Source: Modestobacter excelsi (GTDB lineage: Bacteria > Actinomycetota > Actinomycetes > Mycobacteriales > Geodermatophilaceae). From it: a stretch of 64,000 bases of DNA. The notes below the pieces were generated by a model. That model had not been told where the DNA came from. It did not search any database and saw nothing but the letters and a program-made list of their open reading frames with translations. Position numbers and translations under genes: made by a program. Positions within the stretch are counted from its first letter, which is position 1. Every line of letters begins with the position of its first letter. Location of the stretch: NCBI RefSeq assembly GCF_005930495.1, contig NZ_SJEX01000005.1, positions 1 through 64,000 on the forward strand. Direction: 5' to 3'. Shown one piece after another: positions 33,106 through 64,000 of the stretch.

Positions 33106-36090
33106 ATGACCTTGCTGAGCACCATCACGCCACGCAAAGACGTGATGGCCGGGGAGCTGACTGAGAGCCGCTTCGCAGCAGGCCTGGAAGATGTTGCCGC
33201 TGGCACCGCCGCGGACACATACGGCGATCCGGGGACCTTCTTCGCGCAGACCTACCCGAGCGAGGGTCTGCGAACGCTACTGAACGAGGCTCTGGGTCGT
33301 CTGCTCGGCACCAAGCCGGACGCCGCGAGCGTTCTCCGACTTGAAACCAACTTCGGTGGCGGCAAGACTCACAACCTCATCGCGCTCTTCCACGCCACGC
33401 GCAGCGGAATCCCCGACCCCCTTGCCGCTGAGTTTATGGATCCGGCGGTCCTTGCCGGCGGAGATGGACCAACGCCCTCCGTCGCGGTGTTCGTCGGGAC
33501 GACAGCCGGAGCGAGCACGTTCCCGGCAGTCGACGGGATCTCGGCGAACACGCCGTGGGGGTACCTGGCGCTGCAGATCGGCGGCAAGGCCGGTTACGAG
33601 ATCGTCCGTAAGGACGACGAGACGATGAGCGCGCCGGGCAGTGATCAGCTCAAGCGAGTCTTTGACGGTAAGCCCGTCCTTATCCTCATCGACGAGATCG
33701 CCCGGTACCTGTCTGCAGCCGGGGCACGCAAGGTCGAAGACAGCAACCTGGCCAAGCAGACTTTGTCCTTCCTTATGGCCCTGTTGGAAGCCGCCGACAG
33801 CAGCGCGCGAGTCGTCGTTGTCATTACCACCGCCGGCGAGACTGACGCCTTCGCCGGAGACACCGAGTCCCTAGCGTTGACGCTGAGGGAGGTGTCCAGT
33901 CTGCTCGCCCGCAAGGAGCTGGTCCTGCGCGCGAGCGGCGAGGCGGACCTGCCCAAAATCCTTGCCCGGCGGCTGTTCGAGGCGGACCTCGCGGGCCTGC
34001 CCGCCCGCCAGGAGGTAGCTGCCAGGTATGCCGACGCCGCAGAGGCCGCGCACGCGGCCGGCCTCGACCTGCCGACGGAGACGATCGCCGGCGCGTGGTC
34101 GAAGGAGGTCGAGGCGAACTACCCCTTTCACCCGGACTTGATCCGCGTACTAGACAAGCGGCTCTCCACGATTCCCAACTTTCAGCGCACCCGGGGGGCC
34201 CTCCGGCTGCTCGCCCGGGCCGTCCGCACTATCTGGGAGAACGGAGAGCCGCTGGAGCTGATCCACCTCCACCACATCGACCTATCCGTGCCCTCGCTCG
34301 CGGAGGACCTGTCCAGCCGCATCGACCGCGCGCTGTACGAGCCGGTCATCCGTGCCGACATCGCGCAGCAGACCGGGGGAACCCCTAGCCACGCCGACGA
34401 GGTCGATCGGCGGATGGGGACCCCGTACGCGCGCCGGCTCGCCACGGCCGCGTACCTCTTCAGCCTGACGAGGGAGGTCCCGGGCGTGGCCGCCAGCGAC
34501 CTCTACGGCGCGGTCCTGACGCCGGGCGACGACCAGAATCTCATCATCAAGGCACTCGACGGCCTCGAAAACTCCTGCTGGTACCTGCACTCCGACCTGC
34601 GCGGCTACCGGTTCTCCACGGAAGCAAGCCTGGTCCGTCTGGTTCAGGAGGCCGAGGAGAAGATCCTCGGCAGCAAGGTCCGCGAGCGCGCCACAAAGAT
34701 TCTCTCTGAACAATTCAAGGATTCAGCCTTGAAGGTCCGTCGGGCATGGGAGGACGCCAAGGTTCCCGACAACAGCGAGGACGCTTACCTCGTCGTCTAC
34801 CACTGGGACGACTTCGGCGACGAAAAGGGCCTCGACCCGAGCACGGGGGAGGTCCCGCAGAAGGTCAGCGAGACGTTCGAGAAGGCCCCGAATGGCGGCG
34901 TCCGCGATTTCCGCAACCGCCTAATCTTCCTCGCGCCCAGCCGTGACGGACACGACCCTATGCTCGCCAAGGTGCGCCGCCTGCTCGCGCTTGAGCAATT
35001 GCGAGGCACTCCTGAGCTGCTGGCGAGCCTAGGTAAGGACAAGCAGGGCGACGTCGCCAAGCAGGCAGCCGAAGCGCAAGCCGAAGCCCGCGTCGCCGTG
35101 TGCAACCACGTCAACGTCCTCTATGTTCCGGACAAGGACGGGCTGGAGACCGTTGTACTCGGGACGGTCACGTCGGCGAGCCTGCTCAGCAATCAGACGG
35201 ACGCCATCCTTGAACGCCTCGACTCCATGGAGAAGACCCTCGTCGCGGGCAGTAAGCCGCTCGATCCTGCCTACGTCCGGAGCAAGCTCGGAGCGAAGTT
35301 CGACTCGCCGCAGCCGACGCTCGAGGTAGTGAGAACTTTCGCTCGCAGGCCGGACCTCAAACTCGTGCTGGACCGGCAGCAGCTGGTCAACCTCTTGATT
35401 GCCGGAGTCCGCAACGGCGTCTGGGAGTACCAGGCCCCCGACGGCGGTGCAGCGGGCTGGTCCACAAAAACAAAGCCCGGACCGACCCCGCGACTCGGCG
35501 AAGACACGCTGCTGCACCCGCCTGGCTCGTATGTTGATCCGGGTCCGGAGCCCTGCCCGCTGTGCGGCACAGTCCACACCGGGCCTTGCGACGACGACGC
35601 TGGCACCGGCGACGACGGTGAGCAGCCCGCGAGCACGCAGTTCGACGGGTCCGGTGCAGCCGGACCGGCCCTAGTCAACGCCCGACAGGCTGCCGTTGAC
35701 GCAGGCCGTACGCACGTCCGCGCAGTTCGCGTCCATGTCGCGTCGCTCGGCGACGGCGCAGGCAAGGAGCTCCAGCGGCTGCTCACCGTCGCCGCCGGTG
35801 CCGGCAGCACCGCACAGACGACCTACGACATCACTGCCCGTGTCGACCTCGACGCCGCCGAGCACGAAGTGAACATCGATTTTCGGGGCAGCCCAGCCGA
35901 GTACGCCCCGCTGCGAGAAGCGCTGCGCTCCCTGCTCGGACGCCCCGCGGATCTCAAGGCAGCCATTGACGTGACCTGGCCGGCCCCCGTGGAGCTCCAG
36001 GGAGACGATGTCGCGGGCGTGGTCGCAGCTGCCCAGTCGACCGGACCCACAAGGTGTGACGTCCGCCTGACGACCGAGGGAACCGCATGA
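33106..36090 (+). CDS. DUF499 family AAA-type ATPase
   Basis: 994 aa from ATG 33106 (GGGAG upstream); the open frame reaches 32860 but the added residues are Arg/Pro-rich noise. Walker A is NFGGGKTHNL (about 82-91) and Walker B is VLILIDEIARYL (about 190-201). Other family-like blocks are YPFHPDLIRVLDKRLSTIPN and NFQRTRGALRLLARAVRTIW. Near residues 818-829 CPLCGTVHTGPC could bind zinc. DUF499 ATPases occur beside DNA methylases and helicases in phage-defence loci and resemble the BrxC/PglY role of BREX. It is the first gene of a four-gene operon, and its stop overlaps the next start in ATGA. The substrate is probably DNA or a partner protein; this is inferred. Confidence 0.88.
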   Translation: MTLLSTITPRKDVMAGELTESRFAAGLEDVAAGTAADTYGDPGTFFAQTYPSEGLRTLLNEALGRLLGTKPDAASVLRLETNFGGGKTHNLIALFHATRSGIPDPLAAEFMDPAVLAGGDGPTPSVAVFVGTTAGASTFPAVDGISANTPWGYLALQIGGKAGYEIVRKDDETMSAPGSDQLKRVFDGKPVLILIDEIARYLSAAGARKVEDSNLAKQTLSFLMALLEAADSSARVVVVITTAGETDAFAGDTESLALTLREVSSLLARKELVLRASGEADLPKILARRLFEADLAGLPARQEVAARYADAAEAAHAAGLDLPTETIAGAWSKEVEANYPFHPDLIRVLDKRLSTIPNFQRTRGALRLLARAVRTIWENGEPLELIHLHHIDLSVPSLAEDLSSRIDRALYEPVIRADIAQQTGGTPSHADEVDRRMGTPYARRLATAAYLFSLTREVPGVAASDLYGAVLTPGDDQNLIIKALDGLENSCWYLHSDLRGYRFSTEASLVRLVQEAEEKILGSKVRERATKILSEQFKDSALKVRRAWEDAKVPDNSEDAYLVVYHWDDFGDEKGLDPSTGEVPQKVSETFEKAPNGGVRDFRNRLIFLAPSRDGHDPMLAKVRRLLALEQLRGTPELLASLGKDKQGDVAKQAAEAQAEARVAVCNHVNVLYVPDKDGLETVVLGTVTSASLLSNQTDAILERLDSMEKTLVAGSKPLDPAYVRSKLGAKFDSPQPTLEVVRTFARRPDLKLVLDRQQLVNLLIAGVRNGVWEYQAPDGGAAGWSTKTKPGPTPRLGEDTLLHPPGSYVDPGPEPCPLCGTVHTGPCDDDAGTGDDGEQPASTQFDGSGAAGPALVNARQAAVDAGRTHVRAVRVHVASLGDGAGKELQRLLTVAAGAGSTAQTTYDITARVDLDAAEHEVNIDFRGSPAEYAPLREALRSLLGRPADLKAAIDVTWPAPVELQGDDVAGVVAAAQSTGPTRCDVRLTTEGTA

Positions 36091-36500
36091 CCCGTAACGA
36101 GGTGTACCGCTGCCTGATCGAGCGCGACGAGGACGGCCGGGTCAAGGCGCTGAGTGTCGAGGCTACGGACCTCGAAGGCGCAGAACGGAGCGTGCGGGTC
36201 AATGGGTACCGGGCGATCCACGTCGCGGCCGGGGCGCAGGAAGTGCTGCGTTCCGCGCGTCTCCGCGGACGGGACTGGACCAGCGGGGAGCCGATCGTCG
36301 TCGACGCACAAGTCGGCGCGCACGTAGAGCTCCTGCTCCGTGCGGTGAAGCCGCTTCAGCGAGTCGATCGCATCGGGACAGTGGCCGACGGCGTGGCCGC
36401 CATGAGCCGCGAGGAAGCGGCCTACTGGCACGCCCAGACGAGTCGCCGTAACGGACTGCGGGCCCTACGCCTGCTGCTCGCCGAGGGAATCAAGCGGTGA
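36087..36500 (+). CDS. Small protein between DUF499 ATPase and DUF1156 methylase
   Basis: 137 aa. Its start and stop overlap both neighbours by four bases (ATGA and GTGA), so it is a genuine operon member made in step with them. It opens TRNEVYRCLIERDEDGRVKA. A beta-strand-rich first half is followed by RVNGYRAIHVAAGAQEVL, and the C-terminal helix ends RNGLRALRLLLAEGIKR. No catalytic motif is seen. I do not recognise the family; a bridging or specificity subunit is a guess based only on position. Confidence 0.8.
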   Translation: MTRNEVYRCLIERDEDGRVKALSVEATDLEGAERSVRVNGYRAIHVAAGAQEVLRSARLRGRDWTSGEPIVVDAQVGAHVELLLRAVKPLQRVDRIGTVADGVAAMSREEAAYWHAQTSRRNGLRALRLLLAEGIKR

Positions 36501-39445
36501 CCGCCCCTAGCCTCATCGACCAGTGGTTCCCCGCTCAGCAGATCGGAGCGGAAAGCCTCCGCGAACGCGGCAGCGCCAAGGCTTTCCCGCCGGTCAACTT
36601 CCTGCACGTCTGGTGGGCACGCCGACCGCTGTCCGGGAGCCGCGCGGCCATTATGGGATCCATTCTGCCCGCGTGGCCGTCCACCGAGCAGGCGGCGGAT
36701 AGCGACGCGGCGGCGGTGCTGCGCGGACTCCAGGCGGAGTTCGGTACAGAGACGGAGTACCGCGAGTGGTTCATGGAGCTCGTTGGCATCCCCAAGGGCA
36801 AGGACCCAGCTCTCGCTCGTGCAGCCATCGCGGCCGCGGTAGCGGCCGGCAACAAGACCGAAGGCAACGCCTACGGTTACGACCGCGCCTTCACCCGTTC
36901 ACCTCAACCAGAAGAGATCCAACGGCTGCAGCGACTGAGCGCGCTGCGCGCCGGTTCATCGGGCCGCGCACGCCCCGTCGTCCTCGACCTGTTCGCCGGC
37001 GGCGGAAGTATCCCCTTCGAGGCGATGCGCCTCGGTTGCGACGCTGTGGCGAACGAACTTAACCCGGTCGCTTCCGCCGTGCTGCAAGGCACTCTCGGCG
37101 CGGTTCACGACTTCGGTCCTGACCTGGGGGACGACATCGCGCGGTGGGGAGCTAAGTGGGCCCAGGCCGCGAAGTCGCGTCTGGAGGCGTTCTTCCCGAG
37201 CGACGAACAGGGGGCGACGCAGTCCTACATCTGGGCGTTCGCGGTGCCCTGTCCCACCACGGGACGGCCGACCCCGCTCGCTCCGAACCTGTGGCTTCAG
37301 CGGGGCTCAGACGCGGTGCGCCTTCTCGTCGATGAGGCCACCGGGACGCTCAAGCCAACGGTCGTGCACGGCGATGAAGCGCTTAAGTACGGTGACCGCG
37401 CCACGTACAAGAGCGGGGTTGCGGAAAGCGTCTGGGAAGGCGGGGCGACCTTCTCCGGGGAGTACATCCAGCAGCAGGCCCAGGCGGGCAACGGGTCCTA
37501 TGTCTTACTTGCCGTCTGTTACGCGCAAGGCAAGAGCCGCCGCTTTCGCACGCCTGACGCCAACGATCTCGCTGCTGTCGAGAACGCCGAGAAGGAGCTC
37601 ACGCGTCTCCGCCCCGGCTGGGACGTCGAAGGGCTCGTTCCCGACGAGGCCGTGCAGCCAGGGCACAAGACCGACGAGCTGCTGCGAATGGGCCTCAGGC
37701 GCTGGTCAGACCTGTTTATGCCGCGCCAGCTGTTAGCCAACACCGTGTTCCTTGAAGAACTCATCGCACTTCAGGGGCCAATGCAGGCCGAACTCGGGGT
37801 CGAGCGCGGCCGCGCGGTCGCGCTGCATCTGGCCTACGCACTAGATCGATGCCTCGACTACAACAGCCGTCTCTGTAGCTGGCACGCAGGGCGCAGCATG
37901 ATCCGTAACGGCTTTGACCGGCATGACTTCGCCTTCTCTTGGACCTGCGCCGAGTTCGAGTCGGGACGGCTACTTCTGCCGTGGGCAATTGCCAACGCAG
38001 CCAAGAACCACGCCAACCTCAGCAGGCTCGTGCACGGAGGGCAGCCGCGGATCGGTGACGACGAGGTGCTCGGTAAGCCGCGCGTGCTCCGGGGCAGCGC
38101 AATCTCAGTCGACCTGCCGGCAGGCTCCGTGGACGCGGTCATCACGGACCCGCCCTATTACGACAACGTCATGTATGGAGAGCTCAGCGACTTTTTTTAC
38201 GTCTGGATCAAGCGATCTCTGCGCGATGTCTGGCCGCAGTTCTGCGACCTGCCCATCACGGACAAGCACGCCGAGGCGGTAGCCAACCCTTCGCTGTTCA
38301 AGGACGTCGCCACGCACGCGGGACGAGGCAGGCGCGAGGTAGGCACGTCGACGGCAGCCGAGCTTGCCAGCGTCCACTACGAGGACTTGCTCACCAGGTC
38401 CTTCCAAGAGGCGCACCGCGTGCTCGCCTCAGAGGGCGTCCTCAACGTCATGTTCACGCACAAGCGCGTCGATGCCTGGGACACGCTGGGCGCAGCGCTG
38501 CTCAACTCCGGTTTCGCGATCACGTCCTCATGGCCCATCGCCACAGAGTCGGAGACTTCCCTGCACCAGGCCAAGAAGAACTCGGCCCAGTCGACCATCC
38601 TGCTGAACTGCCACAAGCGCGGCAGTACGCAGCCCGCCTACTGGGCCGACATCCGTCGTGACGTCGAGGACGCTGCCGTCGAGGCCGTCGGACGGTTCGT
38701 CGGCCACGGGCTCAAAGGCGTCGACCTCACCCTCGCCACGTACGGCCCGGTGCTGGCCGTGCTGTCTCAAAATTGGCCGGTCTTCACGGGGGAGCTCGAC
38801 AAGTCCGGGAATCCGGAGATCCTGCGCCCCGACATCGCACTCGACCTCGCGCGCGAGAAGGTCGCAGTGCTGAAGAAGCGAGGACTCCTTGGCGGTAAGG
38901 ACGTCGAATTCGACCGGGTCACCGACTGGTGGCTGCTCGCCTGGTCAGACTTCGAGGCGGCCGAGTTCCCCGCAGGGGAGGCACTCAAGCTGTCCCTCGC
39001 GACCCACCTGGATCTGGACGATCTGACGAAGGCACACAAGCTGATCAAGGCGGCGTCCGGCAAGGTGACCCTGTTGACGCCGGCGCAGCGGCGGACGGCG
39101 AAGGGGCTCGATGCCGACGCTTCCACCTATCGGACGCTGGTGGACGCGCTGCACGCACTCATGCTCGTCTACAGCGAGGACGGCACGCGCGAGGCTCAGA
39201 AGTGGCTGGTCACCCACGGGCTCGCGGACGACAGCAGCTTTGAGAGCCTGGTACGCGCCGCCATCCACGCGGTCCCTAGGCAGAAGCAGCAGGGCGAGTT
39301 CGTGCGCCCCGAGGCTCGAATTTTGGACTCCCTCCGAAACGCCTTCTTCGAAACTATCCCTCTTCCCCCGGACCGTGACGAGCTCATCGCCGCCGCAGCC
39401 GCCGCAGCCGCACAGCGGGCCGCGGGCAGTCCTCGGCTGTGGTGA
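36497..39445 (+). CDS. DUF1156 adenine-specific DNA methyltransferase
   Basis: 982 aa, GTG start overlapping the previous stop. The N-terminal DUF1156 block is WFPAQQIGAESLRERGSAKA and FLHVWWARRPLSGSRAAIMG. The SAM-binding motif VLDLFAGGGSIPFEAMRLG lies at about residue 160. The catalytic motif ITDPPYYDNVMYGEL (DPPY) lies near residue 551, about 390 residues later, so a large insertion separates the two. The end has VLNVMFTHKR and SWPIATES, usual for the family. It probably makes N6-methyladenine to mark self DNA for the operon. No separate specificity (HsdS-like) subunit is present, so recognition may lie in the insertion or in the partners. Confidence 0.88.
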   Translation: MTAPSLIDQWFPAQQIGAESLRERGSAKAFPPVNFLHVWWARRPLSGSRAAIMGSILPAWPSTEQAADSDAAAVLRGLQAEFGTETEYREWFMELVGIPKGKDPALARAAIAAAVAAGNKTEGNAYGYDRAFTRSPQPEEIQRLQRLSALRAGSSGRARPVVLDLFAGGGSIPFEAMRLGCDAVANELNPVASAVLQGTLGAVHDFGPDLGDDIARWGAKWAQAAKSRLEAFFPSDEQGATQSYIWAFAVPCPTTGRPTPLAPNLWLQRGSDAVRLLVDEATGTLKPTVVHGDEALKYGDRATYKSGVAESVWEGGATFSGEYIQQQAQAGNGSYVLLAVCYAQGKSRRFRTPDANDLAAVENAEKELTRLRPGWDVEGLVPDEAVQPGHKTDELLRMGLRRWSDLFMPRQLLANTVFLEELIALQGPMQAELGVERGRAVALHLAYALDRCLDYNSRLCSWHAGRSMIRNGFDRHDFAFSWTCAEFESGRLLLPWAIANAAKNHANLSRLVHGGQPRIGDDEVLGKPRVLRGSAISVDLPAGSVDAVITDPPYYDNVMYGELSDFFYVWIKRSLRDVWPQFCDLPITDKHAEAVANPSLFKDVATHAGRGRREVGTSTAAELASVHYEDLLTRSFQEAHRVLASEGVLNVMFTHKRVDAWDTLGAALLNSGFAITSSWPIATESETSLHQAKKNSAQSTILLNCHKRGSTQPAYWADIRRDVEDAAVEAVGRFVGHGLKGVDLTLATYGPVLAVLSQNWPVFTGELDKSGNPEILRPDIALDLAREKVAVLKKRGLLGGKDVEFDRVTDWWLLAWSDFEAAEFPAGEALKLSLATHLDLDDLTKAHKLIKAASGKVTLLTPAQRRTAKGLDADASTYRTLVDALHALMLVYSEDGTREAQKWLVTHGLADDSSFESLVRAAIHAVPRQKQQGEFVRPEARILDSLRNAFFETIPLPPDRDELIAAAAAAAAQRAAGSPRLW

Positions 39446-42400
39446 CCGCACCGCCTGCCGCGGACGACGTCCTGTCGCTGCGCACTTTGGACCTACCGCC
39501 GGGGTACGACAGTGGGGACGACGTACTCAACGGCTTCTACGTCCCAGCGTTGAAAAAGGCCGTCTCCTACTCACGTTCGGTCGGTTATTTCCGGTCGTCC
39601 TCGCTGGCGGTTGCCGCGCGGGGTATGTCGCGGTTTCTTAACAACGGTGGGTCGGTGCGGCTGCTCTGCGGTGCCGCCCTGACGCCGCAGGACCTCGAGG
39701 CGCTGCAGGGCAAGGAGACGATCACTGGCGAATTGGCGGATCGCCTGGCCGCCGGACTCGTCACGAGCAGCGAGGTCGACCGCCGGCGCATGGAGGTTCT
39801 CGCGTGGCTCATCAAGGAAGGACGGTTGGAGGTCAAGGTAGCGATTGCCGTCGACGGCGACGGGAAGCCCCTGCCCGACCAGGAGAACAACCCGTACTTC
39901 CACGAGAAGATCGGGGTCCTGAAGGACCAGGCCGGTGACGCCATTGCGTTTCAGGGCAGCATCAACGAATCTCTCACGGCTTGGACTCGCAACTTTGAGT
40001 CGTTCAGCGTATACAGCAGCTGGGACGGCACGGCCGGGCATTTCGCGTTCTGGGCCGCCAAGTTCGAGAAGCGCTGGAACGGCGACATCTCCGGATTCAA
40101 GCTCTACGGCCTGCCCGAGGCTGCAGAGAAGGCGCTCCTTGCCCTGGCACCCGACACAATGCCTGGGGAACGGGACGCCGAGGAGCCGCCGCCGGTCGGC
40201 GAGCCGAGTACCGTCGCCAACTTCTTGCTGGCTGCGCCCAGACTCCCTTGGGCCGGCGACCTGGCCGAGGAGACGAGCGGTGTCCGGCTGTTCCCACATC
40301 AACGCCAGAACGTCGCCCGGCTCGCCGGCATGTACCCACGGTCCTGGCTGGTCGCCGACGAGGTAGGACTTGGCAAAACGGTCAGCGCCGGCATGAGCCT
40401 GCGGTACCTGGTCCTCAACGGCGAGGTGCAGAAGGCCCTGGTGCTGGCGCCGGCGAACGTCTGCCGGCAGTGGCAGGACGAACTGTTCGAGAAGTTCGCG
40501 CTGTGGGTGCCACGCCTCGACCAGGGCAAAATTTACGGTGCGCACCCGGATGATGTCTCACCAGCGGGCGCGAACCCCTACGCGGATCACCCCCTGCTGC
40601 TCGCATCGAGCCACCTCGCCCGCCGGCCTGAGCAACAGCGGCTCCTGTTGGCGGCAGCGCCGTACGACCTGATCGTCGTGGACGAGGCGCACCATGCCCG
40701 ACGACAGCACGGGTCCGAGGACCGGTACAGGCCGAGCAGACTGCTGGACCTGCTGGACTCCGTGAACCGGCAAAACGCCGCCCGCGCGATATGGCTGATG
40801 ACCGCCACCCCGCTGCAAACAGCGGCCGTTGAGCTGGTCGACCTGCTGCGGCAGACAGGCCTGTCGGGACCTCTGACTGACGAAGCGGCGTTTGTACGCT
40901 TCTACGGCGAGTTGTCCAAGACCGACGACAGGCGGGCCGCGTGGGCTTGGCTGGCCGAACAGGTCCGGAGAACCCCGGCGCTTCCCAGGACCGGCGCGGA
41001 GGACGCCGCGGCGTCGGACATCGTGCGCCGCCTTGGTCAGGTTCGGTCCGAGATGGTGTTCCGCTTCGGGCACGACGGGGTCGCGGCCGAGCAGCGTGTC
41101 GCGGAGCTTGGGCCTGACGGACGAGAGGCTCTCCGGGAGTGGCTTCGAGCGCTCGGCCCGGTGAGGCAGTACGTGGCCCGTCACAGCCGCGCCACGCTGA
41201 AGGTCTACCGCAAGCGCGGCCTCATCACCGAGAATCTCGCTGACCGCAACGTCCAGCCGCACGTCGTTGACTTGGAACCGGCGGAGCAGCAGCTTTACGA
41301 GGACCTCGAAGCGCTCATTGACCGCCTCCTGGAGGCTCACGGCAAGCGGCGGGGAGCTGGATTCGTCTTGACCGTGTACCGCCGCCGGTTGACTAGCAGT
41401 TGGGCCGCCATCCACAAGACGTTGCTCAAGCGCCTCGCCAGCGAGGAAACGTTTTTGGAGCAGTCGCTCCTCGATGACGACCAGGATGAGTACGGCGACG
41501 ACGAGGACGCAGCGGGTGTCATTGACACCGTCGCCGTCCCGCTGACCGCTCAAGACCTAGTCGACATGCGGGCGTACGCCGACCGGATTGACCGAGTCAG
41601 TGACGGCAAGTTCTCCGTCCTGGAGCAGCACCTTGAGGACGCCAGGGGTAACGGCCACAGCTCTATCGTCTTTACTCAGTTCACGGACACGCTCGACTAC
41701 CTTCGGGACCGGCTCCACCACCGGTACCGCAGCCATCTCGCAACCTTTACCGGGGACGGCGGGCGGGTGTTTCGCGAGGACCAGGGCTGGGTGAAAGTCA
41801 GCAAGCGTGACTTGGTGGAAGCGGTCAGGGCCCGGACCGTCACCGTCCTGCTCGCCACCGACGCGGCGAGCGAGGGCCTGAACCTCCAGACGTGCAGCTA
41901 TCTCATCAACTACGACATGCCCTGGAACCCAATGAGGGTCGAGCAGCGGATCGGGCGCGTCGACCGTCTCGGGCAAGTCCGTGACGTCGTGGAGATCCGC
42001 AACTTCTTCATCGAAGGAACCGTCGAGGAAGAGGTCTACCGGGCCTTGGCCTCCCGCATCGACTTGTTCAGCGGCATCGTCGGCGGCCTGCAACCCATCC
42101 TGGGGGCCGTGGAGGGGGCCTTCCGCGATGTCTTCAAGTCACCTGCAAGCGAGCGAACGAAGGCCCGCGAGGCGCGCATCGAATCACTAGTGAGCCTCGT
42201 CGAGTCCAATCCGGGAGCGGGCCTGCCTCTGGACGTCGAGGAGGACCCACTACCCATCCCCACCGCCGAACCCGGCCCAGTGACGCTCGCGGATCTCCGG
42301 GAGGTCGTCATCGAGCGGCTCGGGGCAGTCTTAGAGGCCCCCGGACGACCGATCACCACAGACCCGGCACGAGTGAGTCGCGATCCTGAATCCTGGGTCG

Positions 42401-49642: not shown

Positions 49643-49827
49643 GCGTTCCCCCGTGATCCGCACTGCGGCGACCGTAACAGCGCTAGGTGATCGCGCAGCT
49701 GCATTTCGTCACACCTGCACCTGCGGTCACGCTGGTTGAAGATCCGGGTGTCGCTGTTCCTGAATGGGCGATGACGGATGGCATGGTCCGCGACGTTGGT
49801 CTTTCGTCGGTCACTAGGGGTTGCCAG
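49643..49827. promoter_or_regulatory. Shared region between divergent AddB-like and hydrolase genes
   Basis: A 185-bp gap from which both modules are transcribed in opposite directions. It holds the GGGGGAAC ribosome site of the AddB-like gene and the AGGGG site of the hydrolase gene. No clear promoter boxes or operator were found by eye. Its sharing suggests co-control of the two modules. Confidence 0.45.
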
Positions 49828-57500: not shown

Positions 57501-57725
57501 GATGCCAAGATCGAGCGGCACGTGTACCCGTACGCCTTGAGCCTTGACGGGCCGCGTTATGACCGGCTGAAGCGGGACCTGGCCCTCTACCGACTCGCCT
57601 TCGGGCAGCCTCGTCAGGAAGACCTGCTGAAGCTGCTCGATCGGCGGAGTGACGAGGAGATCGACGCCACCGACGTCATAGACCTGCGGGCGCCCTCGCG
57701 AGTGGGCCACGGCGATGGACTATGA
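54534..57725 (+). CDS. SNF2/DEAD-like helicase
   Basis: 1063 aa; GTG overlaps the PLD stop. Walker A is VADETGLGKSVVARGVI (about 40-56). The Walker B box is ILDEFQRFKNL in place of DEAH. Motif III is LLLSATPYKPF. The second RecA domain ends TTSAGQEGIDFHWWCSAIVH and DFEQREGRVHRFGGH (about 900-945). The long insertion between the lobes is usual for restriction-type SNF2 enzymes. It likely translocates on DNA and drives the PLD partner. It is the fourth gene of the hydrolase operon. Confidence 0.85.
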   Translation: MTRFDAGPVLAGLKDFQRATVEHVARRFFADPQPTRRFLVADETGLGKSVVARGVIAKTLEHLQDDDSVDRIDVVYICSNADIARQNLARLEVTGSRATHMSTRLTMLAMHTASLNGAASDMIDKPVNLVAFTPGTSFEQGWRTGQAEERALIYLLLEEQLGLSGWARRSALQALRATTRSYGRFEDVVENLRWTLNGGPDPVIAEAFGRGIKEDDLARRAEELFDDVGRRHELSGELRQRATGLIGELRGRLARASIESLEPDLVILDEFQRFKNLLSVEQGGESAELARELFDYGQAKVLLLSATPYKPFTLEQERLATGESHHKDFLETLRFLNGDPDWLNQVDGALADYRDALSRAASASESAGRVRELLTTVMTRAERPRLGTGEMVQERRTELADLTADDVRGYVRLRELASALDANATLEYWKSAPYFINFVEGYQLGDKLKKALADGVTPGVRELAARTQQLDTAAISSFKPMDLGNARLRRLAEDTVDKGWAELLWLPPSMPYFTLGAPFAQHAAAGITKRLIFSSWSATPTAIAGLLSYEAERRIAGDVLTENSVQARASVASRLDYRLDDGRPAAMSALALFWPHPELARLGDPLTVARSRPGEMLSAAQLEGLVRDALQVSSTEEGVPEQDGDTAVWGRFFAWPGALPDDVGADLLPLLAGSSAEFAPGASQDDVESRAGLSGHVEQALRTIASGGSAGLQRRNSLARDVVRLAVHAPGNIAWRALARVLDERDDVTAGEHWRAAAHLAAGLRSLFNRLESTLIIGQGDGGGAYWRAVLKYCAAGNLQAVLDEYVHHLRSSLSDAPLTGETLFDLADDMVSALTLRVANYGPYYPLDEHGPRLRSRFALRYGSARGTAADAAEGVQARQQDVRSAFNSPFWPFVLATTSAGQEGIDFHWWCSAIVHWNTPANPVDFEQREGRVHRFGGHAVRRNVAAAHREEALSSEASDPWKAAYDAANEATREQGDFAPYWVYGGDAKIERHVYPYALSLDGPRYDRLKRDLALYRLAFGQPRQEDLLKLLDRRSDEEIDATDVIDLRAPSRVGHGDGL

Positions 57726-57982: not shown

Positions 57983-58040
57983 CGATCGACGACCTCACAA
58001 CTGAAGGCTCACTTGTCGGGCGGAGATGGCGAAGCTACTC

Positions 58041-58062: not shown

Positions 58063-58128
58063 AGGAATGATCCAGGTCGCCTTTTTGTGATCTGCTGATG
58101 GCGGTCTCTAGCGGGGGAGTGAAGAAGG

Positions 58129-61100
58129 TTGTTCGGGTACACGGCGGAACAGGTCAGGGCTAGTTGCGGGTACCACCCCGAAGCGCGGGACGCATCGGAT
58201 CTAGCCGGGGTCGTTCCTGGTATCGACGCTCTGTTCGTCGGACCACCTCGGTTGGAGCAGCGCGACCTTTTTGGGGAGGTTCGTCACCTGAACCAGCCAG
58301 AAGTGGAGCTCCCCGAGGGGGTGTACTGGTTCTCACGATCCACGCAAACCCGGTCCATGGTCGTCTCTCGTGGCGCGCCGGCCGGCACGAGCCAGCGCGT
58401 CGAAAGTGATGCGCTCTCGGAGGATCACGCCCTGCGCGACGCAGAGGCGTGGATGGACCACCTCTGGCCGCTCGGAGCCGATGTTCCCACTCCGCAGTTT
58501 GCGGTCAACGACGACGTCATGGTCATCAATTCGGGCCGTGACCACCCTGTGCGGGCCCGCCGGTTTGCGGCTGGGCAATGGATTTACGAACTGCGGGTGG
58601 ACGGACGGCAAATCGCCTTCGGCGAGGACATGCTGACTGGGCTGCAGTCCAGTGACACGGTCCATGACTGGATCCGTCAGTCTCCCGACACTGCTCGTCG
58701 GCTGAGCGCCACGCTGACGCGCGCGAAGCTCGCCGGCGCTTTCACCGACACGCTCTTCTCGTTCCGCGCGACGCGGACCCTCTTTCGCCCCTACCAGTTC
58801 CGCCCGGTCATTCGGATGCTCGAGTCGGGCAAGTCCCGCATCCTCATCGCCGACGAGGTCGGGTTGGGCAAGACCATCGAGGCAGGCCTCGTGTGGACGG
58901 AGCTAGAGGCGCGGAAGTCCGCCGATCGAGTGCTCGTTGTGTGCCCGGCATCGCTGGTCGCCAAGTGGCGTCGCGAGATGGAGGACCGGTTCGGCTTCCA
59001 GCTGATTGAGCTATCGGGAGCCGCAGCCAGCGATTTCGAGCAGCGAGCACGGGAGAACCGCCTGCCGCGACGCTTCGCTTACATCGTCAGCCTCGAGCGT
59101 CTTCGCATGTGGGAATCGATGGAGGAGCTGGCCAGTCTGGCGGGGCCGTTGAGTCTCGTCATCGTTGACGAGGCCCACAACATGAGGAACGTGAGCACTG
59201 CGTCTCATCAGGCGGGGACGCTGTTGAGCGAATGGGCTGAGGCGCTCGTCTTACTGACGGCGACACCCATCAACCTGCGCAACGAGGACCTGTACAACCT
59301 GCTGGACTTGCTTTCTCCGGGCGACTTCGGTGACGCCGGATCCATGGAGCTGCAGCTGGAACCCAACGTCGTCCTCAACCGCGTGGGTGGCCTCCTCGCA
59401 GCTCCAGGTGTCGAAGGCGCGACTCGGCTACGAGCGCTGGACCAGATGCGCTCCCTCTCCATGGGGCGACCTTTGGTCAGTCGGAGCGAATTCGCGTCAC
59501 TGCGCGAGATCGTGGGACGAGACGACCTGAGTCCGCGAGACATCGTGCAGGCACGGCGCTACCTCGCCGAGCTCAACGTCCTGTCCTCCGTCTTCACCCG
59601 CACTCGACGGGTTGAGGTGGACGAGAAGAAGGCCGTACGGCACGCCATGGACACGCAAGTCGTGTGGACCCCCGCGGAGTTGCGGTTCTATGACGAGTAC
59701 GTCACGTGGTGCCGCAATCGTGCTGCGGCCGCTGGTCAGCCGCCGGGCTTTGCGATGCAGATGCCTCTGCGCTTGGCTTCTGCCTGTCTGCCGGCTGCAC
59801 GGGCAGCGGTTCTGCGGTGGAGCGTCGAGGACGAAGTCGCAGACGAGGACTCGACAGTGCTGCCGGCGACGTCGAAGGCTCCGATGCTTAGGCCTCACGC
59901 GGAACTTCTGCAGGCGGCAGATGCCATCGCCGACGTCGATAGCAAGTTCGACGCCGTCGCTCCAAAGCTGCTTGATGTGGTCAATGCGGGACGTCGAGCG
60001 CTGCTCTTCACCTTCTCGCGCCCGACGCTCGCCTACCTGGAACGCCGGCTACGGGATCAGTGCCGGGTTGCCGTTCTCCACGGTGGCGTCGACCGCGACC
60101 GCAGGAACGAGGTCATCGCCGACTTCCGAGCAGGCCGGTACGACCTCGTGCTGGCCAACAAGGTCGCAAGCGAAGGGTTGGACTTCGAGTTCTGCTCGGT
60201 GATCGTGAACTACGACTTGCCGTGGAATCCCATGGAGGTCGAGCAGCGCATCGGACGCATCGATCGGATCGGACAGGCGGAGGAGAGAATCTCTATCCTC
60301 AACGTCTGGTGCCCTGCGGCTCTCGACGATCGCATCAAGCAGCGCCTCCTCTCTCGAATCGGGGTCTTTGAGGGCAGCATCGGGGCGCTGGAGCCAATCG
60401 TGACGGACCACCTCAAGGCACTCCAAGACGTCGTCTTCGACTTCGCTTTGAGTGACGAACAAAGAGCAGCGAAGGCCGACCATGCCCTGGCCGCCATCGA
60501 GGAGCAGCGCAGCAGCCTCGAAGATCTCGCGACGGCCACGCCCTTCCTGCTAGGGGCATCGACCACAGATGTCGCCGGCCTGGAACAGGACCTCGTGGCC
60601 TCAGGTCGCTATGTAGGCACGGCGGAGCTCCAACACGTGCTCGAAGACTGGGCTTCTTTTTGCCAAGCTCCCCCTCCCGTGGTGATTGACCAGGGAGTGG
60701 GTCTGCGCCTCCGGGGAAACCGGGACATGGCCGACCGACTTCACCGCCTCGTCGTCGACGAACGGTTGAGCCGCGAAGAGGCTGGCCGATACGAACGCGC
60801 TCTCCGGAACGAGGAGGAGTTGCACCTCGTGCTTGACCAGGAGACCGCACGGACGAGCCAGACAATGGACCTGCTGTCGGCGCGACACCCGCTCGTCTTG
60901 GCTGCTGTCAACGTCCCCGAACATCGTCGTGCTCGCTTCGCGATTGTCCGTGTGGCGGCCCGGGGAGAGCTGGAGCCGGGAACCTACGTCGTCGAGCTGG
61001 CGGTGGCGCGGTGGGAGGCGCCGCGCGCGGGCCAGGAGATCTGGGGAACTGCCGTCGGGGCCGATGGTCGGCCGGCTGGCGACGAGTACGTGGATGTCCT

Positions 61101-61482
61101 GCTCGCGAGACTGGCCACCGGTGGGCTGCAGGAGGGGCTGCGGCCGGTCCCGGACTCGCTTGGTAGGTGCGTGGACTCCCTACAGGGGCTCATGGACGAC
61201 CGGATGCTCCGCGAGAATGAGCGACGCCGACGCGAGATCACTGCGCTCATCGAGTCTCGCCGAGTCCTGCTCAAAGACCAGCACGAGCGGGCGCGTGCCT
61301 CAATCCATGCGCGCCGACGCACGGCTCACGAGCGGGGCAAGAGCCGAGGCGTAAAGCTCTTCGACAGCCAGTTGGCTAGCCGCGAGGAGGCTCACCGGCA
61401 GACGTTGAGCGAGCTGGACAAGACTGGCACGCCCGACGTGACGGTGTCTCCGCTCGCCATTTGTGTCTTGGAGGTGGGCTAG
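58129..61482 (+). CDS. RapA-like SNF2 helicase
   Basis: 1117 aa from TTG 58129, with GGGGGAG about 10 bases upstream; an in-frame stop at 58120 rules out a longer form. Walker A is IADEVGLGKTIEAGLVW (about 240-257) and the DEAH box is VIVDEAHNMRN. Motif III is LLTATPINLRNEDLYNLLDL. The C-lobe has LANKVASEGLDFEF and EVEQRIGRIDRIGQ (about 680-715). The C-terminal third is helical and very charged. The layout matches SNF2 proteins annotated as RapA-like, which act on RNA polymerase or, in DISARM (DrmD), on phage DNA. It overlaps the HelD-like gene by one base (TAGTG). Motor activity is clear; the target is inferred. Confidence 0.85.
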   Translation: MFGYTAEQVRASCGYHPEARDASDLAGVVPGIDALFVGPPRLEQRDLFGEVRHLNQPEVELPEGVYWFSRSTQTRSMVVSRGAPAGTSQRVESDALSEDHALRDAEAWMDHLWPLGADVPTPQFAVNDDVMVINSGRDHPVRARRFAAGQWIYELRVDGRQIAFGEDMLTGLQSSDTVHDWIRQSPDTARRLSATLTRAKLAGAFTDTLFSFRATRTLFRPYQFRPVIRMLESGKSRILIADEVGLGKTIEAGLVWTELEARKSADRVLVVCPASLVAKWRREMEDRFGFQLIELSGAAASDFEQRARENRLPRRFAYIVSLERLRMWESMEELASLAGPLSLVIVDEAHNMRNVSTASHQAGTLLSEWAEALVLLTATPINLRNEDLYNLLDLLSPGDFGDAGSMELQLEPNVVLNRVGGLLAAPGVEGATRLRALDQMRSLSMGRPLVSRSEFASLREIVGRDDLSPRDIVQARRYLAELNVLSSVFTRTRRVEVDEKKAVRHAMDTQVVWTPAELRFYDEYVTWCRNRAAAAGQPPGFAMQMPLRLASACLPAARAAVLRWSVEDEVADEDSTVLPATSKAPMLRPHAELLQAADAIADVDSKFDAVAPKLLDVVNAGRRALLFTFSRPTLAYLERRLRDQCRVAVLHGGVDRDRRNEVIADFRAGRYDLVLANKVASEGLDFEFCSVIVNYDLPWNPMEVEQRIGRIDRIGQAEERISILNVWCPAALDDRIKQRLLSRIGVFEGSIGALEPIVTDHLKALQDVVFDFALSDEQRAAKADHALAAIEEQRSSLEDLATATPFLLGASTTDVAGLEQDLVASGRYVGTAELQHVLEDWASFCQAPPPVVIDQGVGLRLRGNRDMADRLHRLVVDERLSREEAGRYERALRNEEELHLVLDQETARTSQTMDLLSARHPLVLAAVNVPEHRRARFAIVRVAARGELEPGTYVVELAVARWEAPRAGQEIWGTAVGADGRPAGDEYVDVLLARLATGGLQEGLRPVPDSLGRCVDSLQGLMDDRMLRENERRRREITALIESRRVLLKDQHERARASIHARRRTAHERGKSRGVKLFDSQLASREEAHRQTLSELDKTGTPDVTVSPLAICVLEVG

Positions 61483-63497
61483 TGAGCGTGCCGGATCCGG
61501 CCGTCCTCGCCGACGAGCGGGCGCGCAACAAGCGGTACGTGCAGACGCTGACGGACAAGGCCAGCCGAGTGGTTCGAATTGCCAAGCCTCGCGTATCCGA
61601 CGACACCAAGAACAGGAAGGGGGTGAGGCAGCTCGAACGGCCGATTCCGCAACCATTTGTCGGACGGATGGGTCTGGCTGCACCAGACCCCCTCCTGCAG
61701 ACAGACAGCATCTACATCGGGCAGTGGTATGCCCGCGAACGCGACTTCGTGGTCATCAGTTGGGCCGCACCTGCGGCGGATGCCTTTTACGGCCACGGCC
61801 CCGGTGCGGACCTGCTCGGCGACGTGCAAGTCACGAGGGCCTTCACGCCTCGCGGTGACGAGATCGTGGCCTACGACGACGAGCGCCGGGACTCGGGAGA
61901 CGGCGAGACGGCCTTCGATCGCAAGGCGGCACTGGTGGTGCCGCGGCCGCCGGCGCGCGCTCGAGATGCAACGGCTGCCGTTGTCAGCCCGCGCGCGGCT
62001 GCGCCTCCATACAGGAAGGCGATCGCTACGCAGCCGGCTGAGCGATCGGTCCCAGCCTCGGCGCCGGCCGATCCGGCTACGAGCGGGCGAGGGACGCCGA
62101 TCGGTTCGCGCGAGCCTGACGCAACAGCCCTTCGGCACAGGAAGGCGCTGCTTCGGACCTTGGCCATCCCTCGGCGGGCAGGGCTCCAGCAGGTGCTAGC
62201 GACTCTGCAGCCGCGGCAACACGACCTGGTCAAGTGGGATTCAGCGAGACCACTCGTGGTCCAGGGTCACCCCGGTGCCGGGAAGACGATCGTCGCGGTT
62301 CACCGCGCCGCTTACCTGATGCACCCGGACCGGGAGGGTGCTCCAGTCGCGGGCAAGGTGCTCCTCCTCGGGCCCACCGAGAATTACGTGAAGCACACGA
62401 CGCATGCCGTCCGAGACCTCGTGCCAGATGGCGGGGTCATCGTTCGCAGTCTCGGTGAGCTCTTCCAGAAGCTCGTTCCCGATCTGGACGTCAGACGCGC
62501 AGCTGAGGACGGCCGCGCCGAGACCTACCAGGACTTCGATACGGGGCTCTGCACCTTGGTGGATTCGGCCGCAGGAATGTTGCGCCGGCGAGGCGGCCTC
62601 GACGAGGCCAAATCGAGGTCCGAGGCGGCGCGCATGATCTACGAGGAGCTGCACGCCAAGGCGGTTTTCGCCTCGCCGGACTGGATTCCTTACCTCCGCG
62701 CGTTACCAGACTGGAGCACGGCTCTGTGCACCGAACGTCTGTCGCCGCTCCTGGCCTATTGCGCGTTGGCTTCAGGCTTGCATCGCTTCGAGTCGCCGGG
62801 GCACGTCATCGTCGACGAGGCTCAGGACGTGCGACCGATCGAGTGGCGCATTCTCCGCTCACTGGTGCGCCCGAATGTCGGCTGGACCCTGGTTGGTGAC
62901 ATGAACCAGCGCCGCTCGGACCACAGCAGCCTGTCTTGGAAGCAAAGCCTCGAGTTCCTGAATCTCGCCGTTGACACCCACATCGAGGACTACCGAAGCG
63001 TCTTCAGATCAACAACGGCGATCCACAAGTTCGCAGGGCACCTCCTGCCGAGCCAGGAGCGACATGGCGTGCCCGTGCAGGAGGAGGGACGTCGCCCAAC
63101 CATCTTGAAAGTGCGTCCGGCCGACATGTCCACGGCGATCGTCACAGCTGGGGCCAAGCTGGCACGAGAGCACCCCGGAGGTACGGTGGCTGCTATCGGC
63201 GTTGAGCATTCTTCGCTGCGTGCGGCATTCGCCAGACACGGTTGGCGGGCGCGTGCGGCGGGCAGCGATGAATACTCGGATGGGCAGCTCACCGTGCGGG
63301 TGCTCTCTGCGAATGATGCCCGGGGCTTGGAATTCGATGGTGTCGTTGTAGTCGAGCCGATCGACTTCCCCAAGAACTTGGGGCGTCACGGACTCCTCTA
63401 CACAAGCCTGACACGAGCCAATCGTTCCCTCGCGGTCGTGCACTCCAAGGCACTTCCGGACCAACTCCGGCGCGCCCCCGCCGACCGAATCGACTGA
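61482..63497 (+). CDS. HelD-like superfamily 1 helicase
   Basis: 671 aa from GTG 61482, with GGAGG about 8 bases upstream. The N-terminal part has the HelD-type helix (LADERARNKRYVQTLTDKAS) and YIGQWYARERDFVVISWAAP, the counterpart of the YIGR...DWRAP motif. A Pro/Ala-rich linker (about 155-215) replaces part of the usual middle. SF1 motifs are Walker A QGHPGAGKTIVAVHRAAYL (about 261), VIVDEAQDVRPIEWRIL, LVGDMNQRRS, SANDARGLEFDGVVVVEP and LYTSLTRANRSLAVVH. Classical HelD releases stalled RNA polymerase. Here it is the partner of an SNF2 motor, probably in defence. Confidence 0.85.
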   Translation: MSVPDPAVLADERARNKRYVQTLTDKASRVVRIAKPRVSDDTKNRKGVRQLERPIPQPFVGRMGLAAPDPLLQTDSIYIGQWYARERDFVVISWAAPAADAFYGHGPGADLLGDVQVTRAFTPRGDEIVAYDDERRDSGDGETAFDRKAALVVPRPPARARDATAAVVSPRAAAPPYRKAIATQPAERSVPASAPADPATSGRGTPIGSREPDATALRHRKALLRTLAIPRRAGLQQVLATLQPRQHDLVKWDSARPLVVQGHPGAGKTIVAVHRAAYLMHPDREGAPVAGKVLLLGPTENYVKHTTHAVRDLVPDGGVIVRSLGELFQKLVPDLDVRRAAEDGRAETYQDFDTGLCTLVDSAAGMLRRRGGLDEAKSRSEAARMIYEELHAKAVFASPDWIPYLRALPDWSTALCTERLSPLLAYCALASGLHRFESPGHVIVDEAQDVRPIEWRILRSLVRPNVGWTLVGDMNQRRSDHSSLSWKQSLEFLNLAVDTHIEDYRSVFRSTTAIHKFAGHLLPSQERHGVPVQEEGRRPTILKVRPADMSTAIVTAGAKLAREHPGGTVAAIGVEHSSLRAAFARHGWRARAAGSDEYSDGQLTVRVLSANDARGLEFDGVVVVEPIDFPKNLGRHGLLYTSLTRANRSLAVVHSKALPDQLRRAPADRID

Positions 63498-63733
63498 GTC
63501 GTCGAGTCGAGAGCGCTGTGCCATCCAGGGCGATCGTGCTGCGAGAACACCGGTGAACCATCGCTTGTAGCGCGCGAAACTCGGTACCAGCCGAGATACC
63601 CGAGTTGTAAAGCCGCGGCGTCGATCTGCCAGGAGCGATTGCAAGTTTGCGCATTCTCACGCGGTTCAGTCGCGCTTCGCTCCGCACTCTTGTCAGCCGC
63701 GAAGAGCCGTCCCATTTCTCTGTCGTAGCTTGA
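63498..63733. other. Gap between convergent genes, nothing recognised
   Basis: 236 bp between the HelD-like gene and the stop of the DUF3427 gene. Open frames here look like shadows. No convincing hairpin or repeat was found. Confidence 0.4.
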
Positions 63734-64000
63734 TCACGCGACTCTCGCCGCGTGGAAGATGTCGCCAGGAAGTGCATGGTCGAGGTGCCAGAGGATGCGC
63801 ATCGGGCGCTCGCCGGTGTGCGAGACGTAGGACATCGGGCCGGCGTACATGTACGGCGGAGTGCCGAGTGTTCCGTCAGCGGTCTTGGTCTCGCGGACGA
63901 AGAGGTGCACCGACGTCCCCATGTCCCGGTGATGGATGTACCGCTGGCCCGTTGGCGACTGTTCGGCTGTTGTGTTCTGTGACTCCCACTGGAAGAGCGT
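63734..64000 (-). CDS. DUF3427-domain protein, C-terminal end only
   Basis: The last 88 residues of a minus-strand gene that continues beyond the window. TLFQWESQNTTAEQSPTGQR, then SVHLFVRETKTADG, YMYAGPMSYVSHTGERPM and ILWHLDHALPGDIF are the signature C-terminal block of DUF3427. In full-length proteins this block follows a DEAD/DEAH helicase, often with an N-terminal PLD domain. The island therefore probably extends to the right of this window. Confidence 0.85.
   Translation of the reverse strand, partial: TLFQWESQNTTAEQSPTGQRYIHHRDMGTSVHLFVRETKTADGTLGTPPYMYAGPMSYVSHTGERPMRILWHLDHALPGDIFHAARVA

What the first reader, a model, noticed from the sequence alone, without database searches (positions are those of the whole stretch)
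33106..64000. A 30-kb run of nucleic-acid-processing genes that looks like a multi-module defence island
Between the transposon scar at 32.7 kb and the right edge nearly every intact gene is an ATPase, helicase, nuclease, methylase or PLD-type protein, arranged as four complete overlapping operons plus one cut by the edge. Seen directly: motifs and overlaps. Known: these families cluster in phage-defence islands. Inferred: anti-phage role.
Basis: partly seen in the sequence, partly recalled or inferred. Interest (0 to 1): 0.8.

Follow-up and report, generated by a model that had tools for sequence, protein, structure and literature searches.

The report
Defence-gene hotspot with HelD-like helicase pair
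A soil actinobacterium carries a swappable block of probable virus-defence gene sets at one chromosomal hotspot; most sets belong to known kinds, but one pairs two motor proteins whose closest solved relatives recycle RNA polymerase, and that pair deserves a test.

Summary
Contig positions 33.1-69.5 kb (33.1-64.0 kb in the window) hold five modules. M1: a DUF499-centred BREX-related operon with DUF7680 in the slot where type-2 systems have DUF3780. M2: an accessory AddB-AddA-like helicase-nuclease pair. M3: ZacABC, a PADLOC-named system, behind a lipase-like gene with an exchanged allele. M4: a DrmD/RapA-like Snf2 helicase joined to a HelD-derived ATPase. M5: a SauUSI-like PLD-helicase-DUF3427 enzyme, cut by the window edge. 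In same-genus genomes (Modestobacter, inferred) the site holds other cargo: another ZacABC plus type I R-M plus Druantia-like genes in one, an ARMADA-like operon beside the left flank in another. As an island this is a new member of a known kind. Least familiar is M4: adjacent genes in 5 genomes from at least two classes (one copy decayed), not always paired, whose HelD-like partner lacks about 140 residues of HelD's RNA-polymerase-clearing insertion and has lost its DWR motif. No module has been tested against phage.

The parts
33106..36090 (+). M1 gene 1: DUF499 AAA+ ATPase (HmaC/DUF499-like), 994 aa
   Evidence: PADLOC HmaC 275 bits, DUF499 158 bits; Pfam DUF499 118 bits; NF042962 203 bits, below its cut-off of 1200
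36087..36500 (+). M1 gene 2: DUF7680, 137 aa, in the slot that holds DUF3780 in type-2 BREX-related operons
   Evidence: Pfam DUF7680 100.5 bits; same slot in L031, L032 and plasmid loci; profile comparison with DUF3780 probability 54, E 1.3e-4
36497..39445 (+). M1 gene 3: DUF1156-type DNA adenine methylase (HmaB-like), 982 aa, DPPY motif
   Evidence: PADLOC HmaB 217 bits; Pfam DUF1156; NF042963 231 bits, cut-off 1000; motif
39439..43020 (+). M1 gene 4: N-terminal PLD (HKD-type) nuclease fused to a Swi2/Snf2 helicase, 1193 aa
   Evidence: PADLOC PLD_Helicase 254 bits; NF042964 351 bits, cut-off 1100; H-K-D..GSxN region and DEAH box
43326..46559 (-). M2 gene 2: AddA-like UvrD helicase with C-terminal PD-(D/E)XK nuclease, 1077 aa
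   Evidence: Pfam UvrD-helicase and PDDEXK_1; addA 262 bits, cut-off 708; best solved relative AddA, E 1.6e-45
46556..49663 (-). M2 gene 1: AddB-like PD-(D/E)XK nuclease, 1035 aa
   Evidence: Pfam PDDEXK_1 101 bits; addB 40 bits, cut-off 904; nuclease motif read by eye
49687..51576 (+). M3 gene 1 (X): alpha/beta-hydrolase (GHSLG) with C-terminal region, 629 aa; overlaps ZacA by 4 bases; exchanged allele
   Evidence: Weak Abhydrolase match, below cut-off; homologues match Abhydrolase_6/Lipase_3/PGAP1 weakly; 40-41% to six other family X genes
51573..52778 (+). M3 gene 2: ZacA (DUF6361), 401 aa
   Evidence: PADLOC ZacA 395 bits; Pfam DUF6361 170 bits
52765..54537 (+). M3 gene 3: ZacB, PLD-type protein with two H-x-K motifs, 590 aa
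   Evidence: PADLOC ZacB 537 bits; PLDc_2 22.6 bits, below cut-off; motifs read by eye
54558..57725 (+). M3 gene 4: ZacC, SF2 helicase, 1055 aa
   Evidence: PADLOC ZacC 1119 bits; DEAD and Helicase_C
58357..61482 (+). M4 gene 1: DrmD/RapA-like Swi2/Snf2 helicase, 1041 aa (1117 aa from the first start, 58129)
   Evidence: PADLOC DrmD 391 bits; NF038317 297 bits, below its cut-off of 610; best solved relative RapA E 6e-33
61482..63497 (+). M4 gene 2: HelD-derived SF1 ATPase, 671 aa; DWR motif altered to SWA, shortened RNAP-clearing insertion
   Evidence: NF041258 HelR 132 bits, below its cut-off of 1100; only solved relatives are HelD, E 5e-27 and 1e-20; spacing and motif
63734..64000 (-). M5, cut by the window edge (continues to contig position 66841): SauUSI-like PLD - helicase - DUF3427 protein, 1035 aa
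   Evidence: PADLOC mREase_IV 947 bits; Pfam PLDc_2, ResIII, DUF3427

Best explanation
It is a variable defence hotspot of a Modestobacter-like actinobacterium, loaded with five modules that probably attack foreign DNA in different ways. M1 is expected, from its family, to methylate self DNA at adenine and use the DUF499 ATPase plus PLD-helicase to detect and cut unmethylated DNA. M2 probably degrades the DNA ends so produced, beside the host's own AdnAB. M3 probably uses the ZacC helicase to find or open invader DNA, the ZacB PLD protein to cut it, and ZacA (fold unknown) as sensor or scaffold; the exchanged hydrolase X would be a membrane-attacking back-up effector. M4 is a two-ATPase machine of a DrmD/RapA-like translocase and a HelD-derived ATPase that I think acts on invader DNA or on complexes bound to it. 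M5 would cut DNA with modified cytosine, like SauUSI. Shown: gene content, families, gene overlap, patchy distribution, cargo turnover at the site. Inferred: the activity of every module and the roles inside M3 and M4.
For: Family matches; solved relatives. Same-genus relatives with different defence cargo at the site. ZacC in 5 of 23 genus genomes, own included. ZacA, B and C all found in 75 of 80 loci (the best 80 of 99 found). Own modules recur as separate units in other combinations and orders: Blastococcus L036 has M4-M3 with M2 further on; G400 has M4 tail-to-tail with M5; G408 has M3 and M5. AddB-AddA pairs lie within about 10 kb of ZacABC in 5 of 80 loci, although substantial AddB-like genes are in only 6 of 245 other genomes of the class.
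Against: No phage test exists here for any module. NCBIfam cut-offs for the anti-phage equivalogs are missed by wide margins in M1 and M4. DUF7680 and X match no PADLOC model. In 6 of 6 AddAB loci found independently of Zac, no ZacABC lay in the 10.6-20 kb read, so the M2-M3 link is loose. The divergent ZacABC of G403 has no X match at E 0.01. In G408 and G400 only the right flank was found beside the cargo, and G401 has its two flanks on different contigs. Lower third-position GC also occurs in other genes of the window. No fold could be predicted.
Confidence: 0.87

Rival explanations
1. The block is a set of DNA repair and recombination genes acquired together, with defence incidental: AddAB-like, UvrD-like and Snf2 helicases act in repair.
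For: M2 is closest to AddAB and M4 to RapA/HelD among solved proteins, families with housekeeping roles.
Against: Patchy distribution, cargo turnover at the site, and M1, M3 and M5 belong to restriction-like or defence-named families. The own genome has other PDDEXK_1 helicase-nuclease candidates.
Confidence: 0.07
2. M4 is an ordinary antibiotic-tolerance or RNA-polymerase-recycling pair (HelR/RapA) that happens to lie in a defence island.
For: Only solved relatives of the second gene are HelD and best solved relatives of the first are RapA; HelR proteins of high G+C actinobacteria can take rifampicin-stalled RNA polymerase off DNA (start of the abstract of PMC10719064 in the listing).
Against: The HelD-like protein has Walker A to motif II spacing 183 against 321 and 325 in one HelD and one HelR, so most of the CO-domain/PCh-loop insertion (Msm residues 261-503, passages of PMC7749160) is missing; the DWR motif said to be absolutely conserved in HelD (passage of PMC8655204) is SWA here and NWA in L261. 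One other HelD homologue (G473) has spacing 254, so size varies in the family. The first gene is nearer DrmD than RapA.
Confidence: 0.2
3. The block is one integrated mobile element rather than a site that collects separate modules.
For: Modules lie together between two flanking genes found side by side with other cargo in relatives; M4 and M5 are tail-to-tail both here and in G400; a 78% AddB start fragment lies beside X in M. lapidis, as AddB does here (L035/L269).
Against: No tRNA gene in the window; no integrase appeared among the proteins scanned from the block, though no search for one was made; module order and combination differ in L036, G400, G408, G403.
Confidence: 0.15

Closest known systems
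DUF499-centred BREX-related (BR) systems, type 2 (also named Hma); NAR 2026 PMC12839542, sections 29, 30 and 33 and passages read
   Same: DUF499 ATPase, small protein, DUF1156 N6-methylase and PLD-Swi2/Snf2 helicase in that order
   Different: The small protein is DUF7680, not DUF3780; the paper reports DUF3780 in 98% of type-2 taxa and its main text does not contain the word DUF7680
ZacABC (PADLOC-DB 2.0.0 models)
   Same: ZacA, ZacB, ZacC in order with 395, 537 and 1119 bits
   Different: An overlapping alpha/beta-hydrolase precedes ZacA here and in the 6 family loci of the scan, not consistently in other taxa and not in the divergent ZacABC of G403
AddAB helicase-nuclease
   Same: AddA-like UvrD + PD-(D/E)XK subunit and AddB-like nuclease subunit, addB before addA
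   Different: Accessory and patchy (6 of 245 other class genomes), beside defence genes here; scores far below the AddAB cut-offs
ARMADA type II (ArmA BrxHII/RapA-like, ArmB methylase, ArmC YprA, ArmD GajB-like with RelE domain); preprint PMC12458937, passages read
   Same: M4 also joins a RapA-type Snf2 helicase with an SF1 helicase
   Different: No methylase and no YprA helicase; the SF1 protein is HelD-derived and only 25% alike to the ArmD-like protein of G401, in the helicase part
SauUSI type IV restriction enzyme (PMC3874153, passages read)
   Same: PLD nuclease, ATPase/helicase, C-terminal DUF3427 in that order
   Different: Specificity for modified cytosine not tested; actinobacterial sequence

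Membership tests
Defence island / defence hotspot | Several defence systems side by side | tested here: met
   10 of 12 genes match PADLOC models against 2 of 10 flank controls
Defence island / defence hotspot | Variable cargo between conserved flanking genes in related genomes | tested here: met
   Own 38.7 kb, G403 38.2 kb, G402 21.5 kb between the flanks, with different content
Defence island / defence hotspot | Anti-phage effect of its modules | not testable with these tools
   Needs phage assays
BREX-related type-2 system | DUF499 ATPase, DUF1156 N6-methylase and helicase encoded together | tested here: met
BREX-related type-2 system | N-terminal HKD nuclease on the helicase | tested here: met
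   PLD_Helicase and NF042964 matches, the latter from residue 32; H-x-K..GSxN region at 155
BREX-related type-2 system | Stand-alone DUF3780 protein in the locus | tested here: inconclusive
   DUF7680 sits in the slot; distant relation to DUF3780 suggested by profile comparison (probability 54, E 1.3e-4; 9 and 3 sequences, 3 of the 9 chosen by position)
ZacABC | ZacA, ZacB and ZacC adjacent and in order | tested here: met
   same order in the complete loci
AddAB helicase-nuclease | AddA-like helicase-nuclease plus AddB-like nuclease with nuclease motifs | tested here: met
   scores below curated equivalog cut-offs
HelD / HelR RNA polymerase recycling factor | DWR motif in the N-terminal domain | tested here: not met
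   SWA here, in L036 and L204, NWA in L261, NWR in L202; DWR in 3 of 3 HelD/HelR compared
HelD / HelR RNA polymerase recycling factor | Full CO-domain/PCh-loop insertion between Walker A and motif II | tested here: not met
   Spacing 183 against 321 and 325; another HelD homologue has 254
DISARM | DrmA, DrmB and DrmC with the DrmD-like helicase | tested here: not met
   No gene of the block has DrmA or DrmB as its best match; DrmC appears only as a weak second match to ZacB, 19.8 bits
ARMADA type II | YprA helicase and PglX-like methylase with the two other helicases | tested here: not met
   Neither lies in the M4 operon
SauUSI-like type IV restriction enzyme | PLD - helicase - DUF3427 architecture | tested here: met
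SauUSI-like type IV restriction enzyme | Cleavage of 5mC/5hmC DNA with ATP | not testable with these tools
   Needs a biochemical assay

The most novel reading that the evidence does not exclude
M4 is an undescribed two-gene defence system, in which a HelD-type RNA-polymerase recycling motor has been stripped of most of its polymerase-clearing insertion, lost its DWR signature, and been coupled to a DrmD/RapA-like Snf2 translocase to act on invader DNA or on transcription complexes bound to it. Beside it, Zac operons carry an exchangeable lipase-like effector.
Probability: 0.35. Interest if true: 0.65.

Novelty: new member of a known kind. Interest (0 to 1): 0.42.

Why it matters
The site is a ready source of candidate systems in a little-studied soil actinobacterial family. 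M4 would link RNA-polymerase recycling motors to phage defence, a question that can be put directly: does the HelD-derived partner still touch RNA polymerase? The exchanged hydrolase in front of ZacABC, 40-41% identical while the core stays at 82-88% among three Modestobacter loci, points to the part of Zac that may be under arms-race pressure. DUF7680 widens the type-2 BREX-related definition to operons in haloarchaea, cyanobacteria and actinobacteria that a search for DUF3780 may miss.

Tried and rejected
Rejected: the minus-strand ORF 49639-51276 as a third gene of M2 (no family match; codon usage favours the plus-strand ORF). M4 as a reduced ARMADA (its SF1 partner is only 25% alike to an ArmD-like protein). 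M4 as DISARM (no DrmA/DrmB). M2 as the housekeeping enzyme (patchy; another adjacent PDDEXK_1 pair in the genome).

Led nowhere: the origin of the Zac name (paper searches, the last of which showed 20 of 164; PADLOC web server paper searched for the word: no occurrence in the main text). A HelD link to phage defence in print: the searches (2 papers; 8 of 154 shown) listed none that holds it, and the main text of PMC8655204 does not contain the words phage, defence or defense; this is not proof of absence. A paper search on AddAB and defence islands (10 of 59 shown) was seen as a listing only. Viral contigs: no confirmed relative of the HelD-like protein. Plasmids: 59 records match the HelD-like protein, none over 80% of its length. 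Profile of ZacA and sequence of X against solved structures: one weak match for ZacA (E 0.077) and none for X. Repeats at the left edge: only short imperfect pairs. The alignment used wrong reading frames for four of five HelD loci (L180, L186, L193, L195); these four were left out. L254 was fetched for an ArmA gene and not analysed. Two loci fetched late (L268, L269) proved to be the same contigs as L034 and L035.


Full report
What is there. The window is positions 1-64000 of a 126,092-base contig of a 5.26 Mb genome. The genus is inferred to be Modestobacter: three same-genus genomes (G408, G689, G399) have Zac contigs with the lengths of named Modestobacter contigs (409,440, 239,567 and 89,886 bases), and for two of these a stretch of sequence was found identical. 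Codon-based gene calling shows third-position GC of 0.75-0.89 in the genes of 33.1-69.5 kb, against 0.97-0.99 in the four genes just to the left; genes of 10.3-20.3 kb also include low values, so the mark is not unique. The block begins after a deaminase gene at 31.3-31.7 kb and a broken stretch, and ends before an ADP-ribosylglycohydrolase gene at 70.4-71.8 kb. Beyond the window it holds M5 (63734-66841), a 550-aa protein without matches and an HD-domain protein. No tRNA gene lies in the window.

More than chance. PADLOC models match 10 of the 12 genes of 33.1-63.5 kb at E<=1e-3, 8 above 100 bits. Of 10 hand-picked flank proteins 2 match, 1 above 100 bits. Several PADLOC families are broad helicase or ATPase families, so the strong and specific matches carry the weight: ZacA/B/C 395/537/1119 bits, mREase_IV 947 bits for M5, DrmD 391, HmaC 275, PLD_Helicase 254, HmaB 217.

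A hotspot, not a conserved block. Among 28 relatives searched, 16 in the genus, the left and right flank DNA were located separately. In G403 the flanks are 38.2 kb apart on one contig, in G402 21.5 kb, in the own genome 38.7 kb. G403 carries there a homologue of the 550-aa protein (45%), another ZacABC (42-52%), a type I R-M system and Druantia-like DruL4/DruE4 (2048 bits). G402 has the HD gene (70%) and only about the last 95 residues of M5. G401, whose flank DNA is 93-95% identical to the own but lies on two contigs, shows none of the modules in the 20 and 10 kb read beside its flanks and has no ZacC; beside the left flank it carries a methylase, a 2059-aa YprA/DruE-like helicase and a UvrD/GajB-like helicase, which I read as ARMADA type II (ArmA not checked). 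G408 and G400 show M3 with M5, and M4 with M5, beside the right flank, but their left flank was not found next to the cargo. Four further genomes read on one side (G398, G399, G407, G409) showed none of the modules in 10.8-19 kb; G399 has its ZacABC on another contig. ZacC is in 5 of 23 genus genomes, own included; one frame has a stop.

M1. Gene order and families match type-2 DUF499-centred BREX-related systems (sections 29, 30 and 33 and passages of PMC12839542). The small protein is DUF7680. Pfam DUF7680 is in 3 of 396 phylum genomes, own included; the two others have the same operon (in one the small gene is seen by the Pfam search only). In plasmids 27 records hold a match; of five inspected, DUF499 lies directly upstream in 5 and a DUF1156 methylase, or a piece of one, within the next three genes in 4; in the fifth, Nostoc, it lies some 6.6 kb further. 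DUF3780 occupies the slot in 3 of 3 inspected operons with anti-phage-annotated genes. Profile comparison gives probability 54, E 1.3e-4; 3 of its 9 DUF7680-side sequences (L224-L226) were unnamed small proteins chosen by position, 20-24% identical to the own. A distant relation is likely but unproven. Scores against NCBI's anti-phage equivalogs are far below their cut-offs, so this is a divergent branch.

M2. AddB-AddA order is kept in the 6 substantial class-level homologues (6 of 245 other genomes; 10 further genomes have only short weak matches). In the Zac loci the pair occurs in 5 of 80, two of these cut by the locus end, in differing places and directions, and AddB fragments occur in two more; in one of those, M. 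lapidis, the AddB start (residues 3-60, 78%) lies divergently beside X as it does here. As a rough figure of mine, about 0.01 such loci in 80 would be expected if places were random; the searches differ in method, so this is only an order of magnitude. None of the 6 independent AddAB loci has ZacABC in the stretch read. I infer an accessory end-degrading helicase-nuclease that cleans up cut foreign DNA.

M3. ZacA, B and C are all found in 75 of 80 loci (the best 80 of 99). Of the five others, four (L064, L073, L086, L094) are short contigs or contig ends and one (L110) has a partial ZacC without A and B. X precedes ZacA in the 6 loci of Modestobacter, Blastococcus and Klenkia, overlapping it by 4 bases in five and by 1 in the sixth as called, and here by 4. 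Against a fixed link: the divergent ZacABC of G403, same genus, has no X match at E 0.01; a homologue of the 550-aa island protein lies upstream of its ZacA instead. Elsewhere the upstream gene is not consistent: among 53 loci with an upstream same-strand ORF (of 72 that could be read) the other groups have at most 3 members. X homologues also lie near Zac in L106 and L078 and away from Zac in L025; 13 of 396 phylum genomes, own included, match X at E<=0.001, some over short parts. Identity shows exchange: own X is 40-41% to the six others, which are 59-95% among themselves, while own ZacA/B/C are 82-88% to the three Modestobacter loci. The GHSLG motif is kept in own X and in the six family homologues; in L106 it reads AHSLG. 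The homologues aligned have a Gly/Ala-rich hydrophobic stretch that is shortened in own X. My reading of X as a membrane-acting effector is inference.

M4. The Snf2 protein is nearest to DrmD models and its best solved relatives are RapA. The second protein's only solved relatives are HelD, and its best NCBIfam models are HelR/HelD, far below cut-off. The genes overlap by one base here and by four in L261. Adjacent pairs: own, Blastococcus L036 (85/73%), G400 (86/71%), G263 of another class (45/34%), and a decayed copy in G436. Against a strict pair: G038 has a lone homologue of the second gene, and G008 and G116 have Snf2 homologues (39%, 31-34%) without it, G116 at a contig end. The Snf2 protein at E<=1e-60 is in 4 of 296 phylum genomes, own included; only two candidates per genome were scored, so this is a lower bound. 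HelD relatives as such are common: 77 of 81 genomes of the order match the second protein at E<=0.001, but of the places listed only own and G038 cover its whole length. Walker A to motif II spacing is 179-183 in four pair members against 325 (HelR) and 321 (HelD), 254 in another HelD homologue and 211 in the lone G038 protein. The missing stretch corresponds to the HelD-specific insertion (Msm 261-503) that enters the polymerase main channel (passages). The DWR motif, called absolutely conserved in HelD (passage), is SWA/NWA in the pair members and DWR in 3 of 3 HelD/HelR compared. So the protein is HelD-like by sequence but fails two defining features. RapA-like defence helicases as a group resemble RapA, so the Snf2 gene alone says nothing about RNA polymerase.

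M5. PLD, ResIII helicase and DUF3427 with 947 bits to a type IV model is the SauUSI architecture as described in PMC3874153 (passages).

Judgement. As an island this is ordinary in kind and well supported. The pieces with new information are the DUF7680 slot, the exchanged hydrolase and, above all, the M4 pair.

Noticed in passing
contig positions 66959-68611 and 68770-69471 (L006:6959-8611 and 8770-9471, minus strand): A 550-aa protein without Pfam, PADLOC or NCBIfam match and an HD-domain protein close the island; homologues sit at the same site in G403 (550-aa protein, 45%, upstream of its ZacA) and G402 (HD, 70%).
   Followed up: partly
window 31741-32746: Broken sequence that looks like transposase remnants between the deaminase gene and the first island gene; the one ORF scanned had no Pfam match, so identity is not established.
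   Followed up: partly
L157:6922-19989 (G401): A close relative carries, beside the left flank, a methylase, a 2059-aa YprA/DruE-like helicase and a UvrD/GajB-like helicase, which looks like ARMADA type II.
   Followed up: partly
L203:6117-12261 (G436): A decayed copy of the Snf2/HelD-like pair with a split Snf2 gene and a stop in the HelD-like gene.
   Followed up: no
L262:5012-7705 and G008:C12:64672-66426: G008 has an Snf2 (M4-like) homologue and an X homologue about 12 kb apart without ZacABC or a HelD-like gene in the stretches read, possibly another defence island.
   Followed up: no
G000:C22:5034-9010: Two adjacent long frames (1143 and 1185 aa) with PDDEXK_1 domains, probably the housekeeping AdnAB of this genome.
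   Followed up: no
L218 (Microbacterium chocolatum plasmid 3): A 14-kb plasmid carries an AddAB-like pair annotated in pieces (46% to the AddB-like protein here).
   Followed up: no
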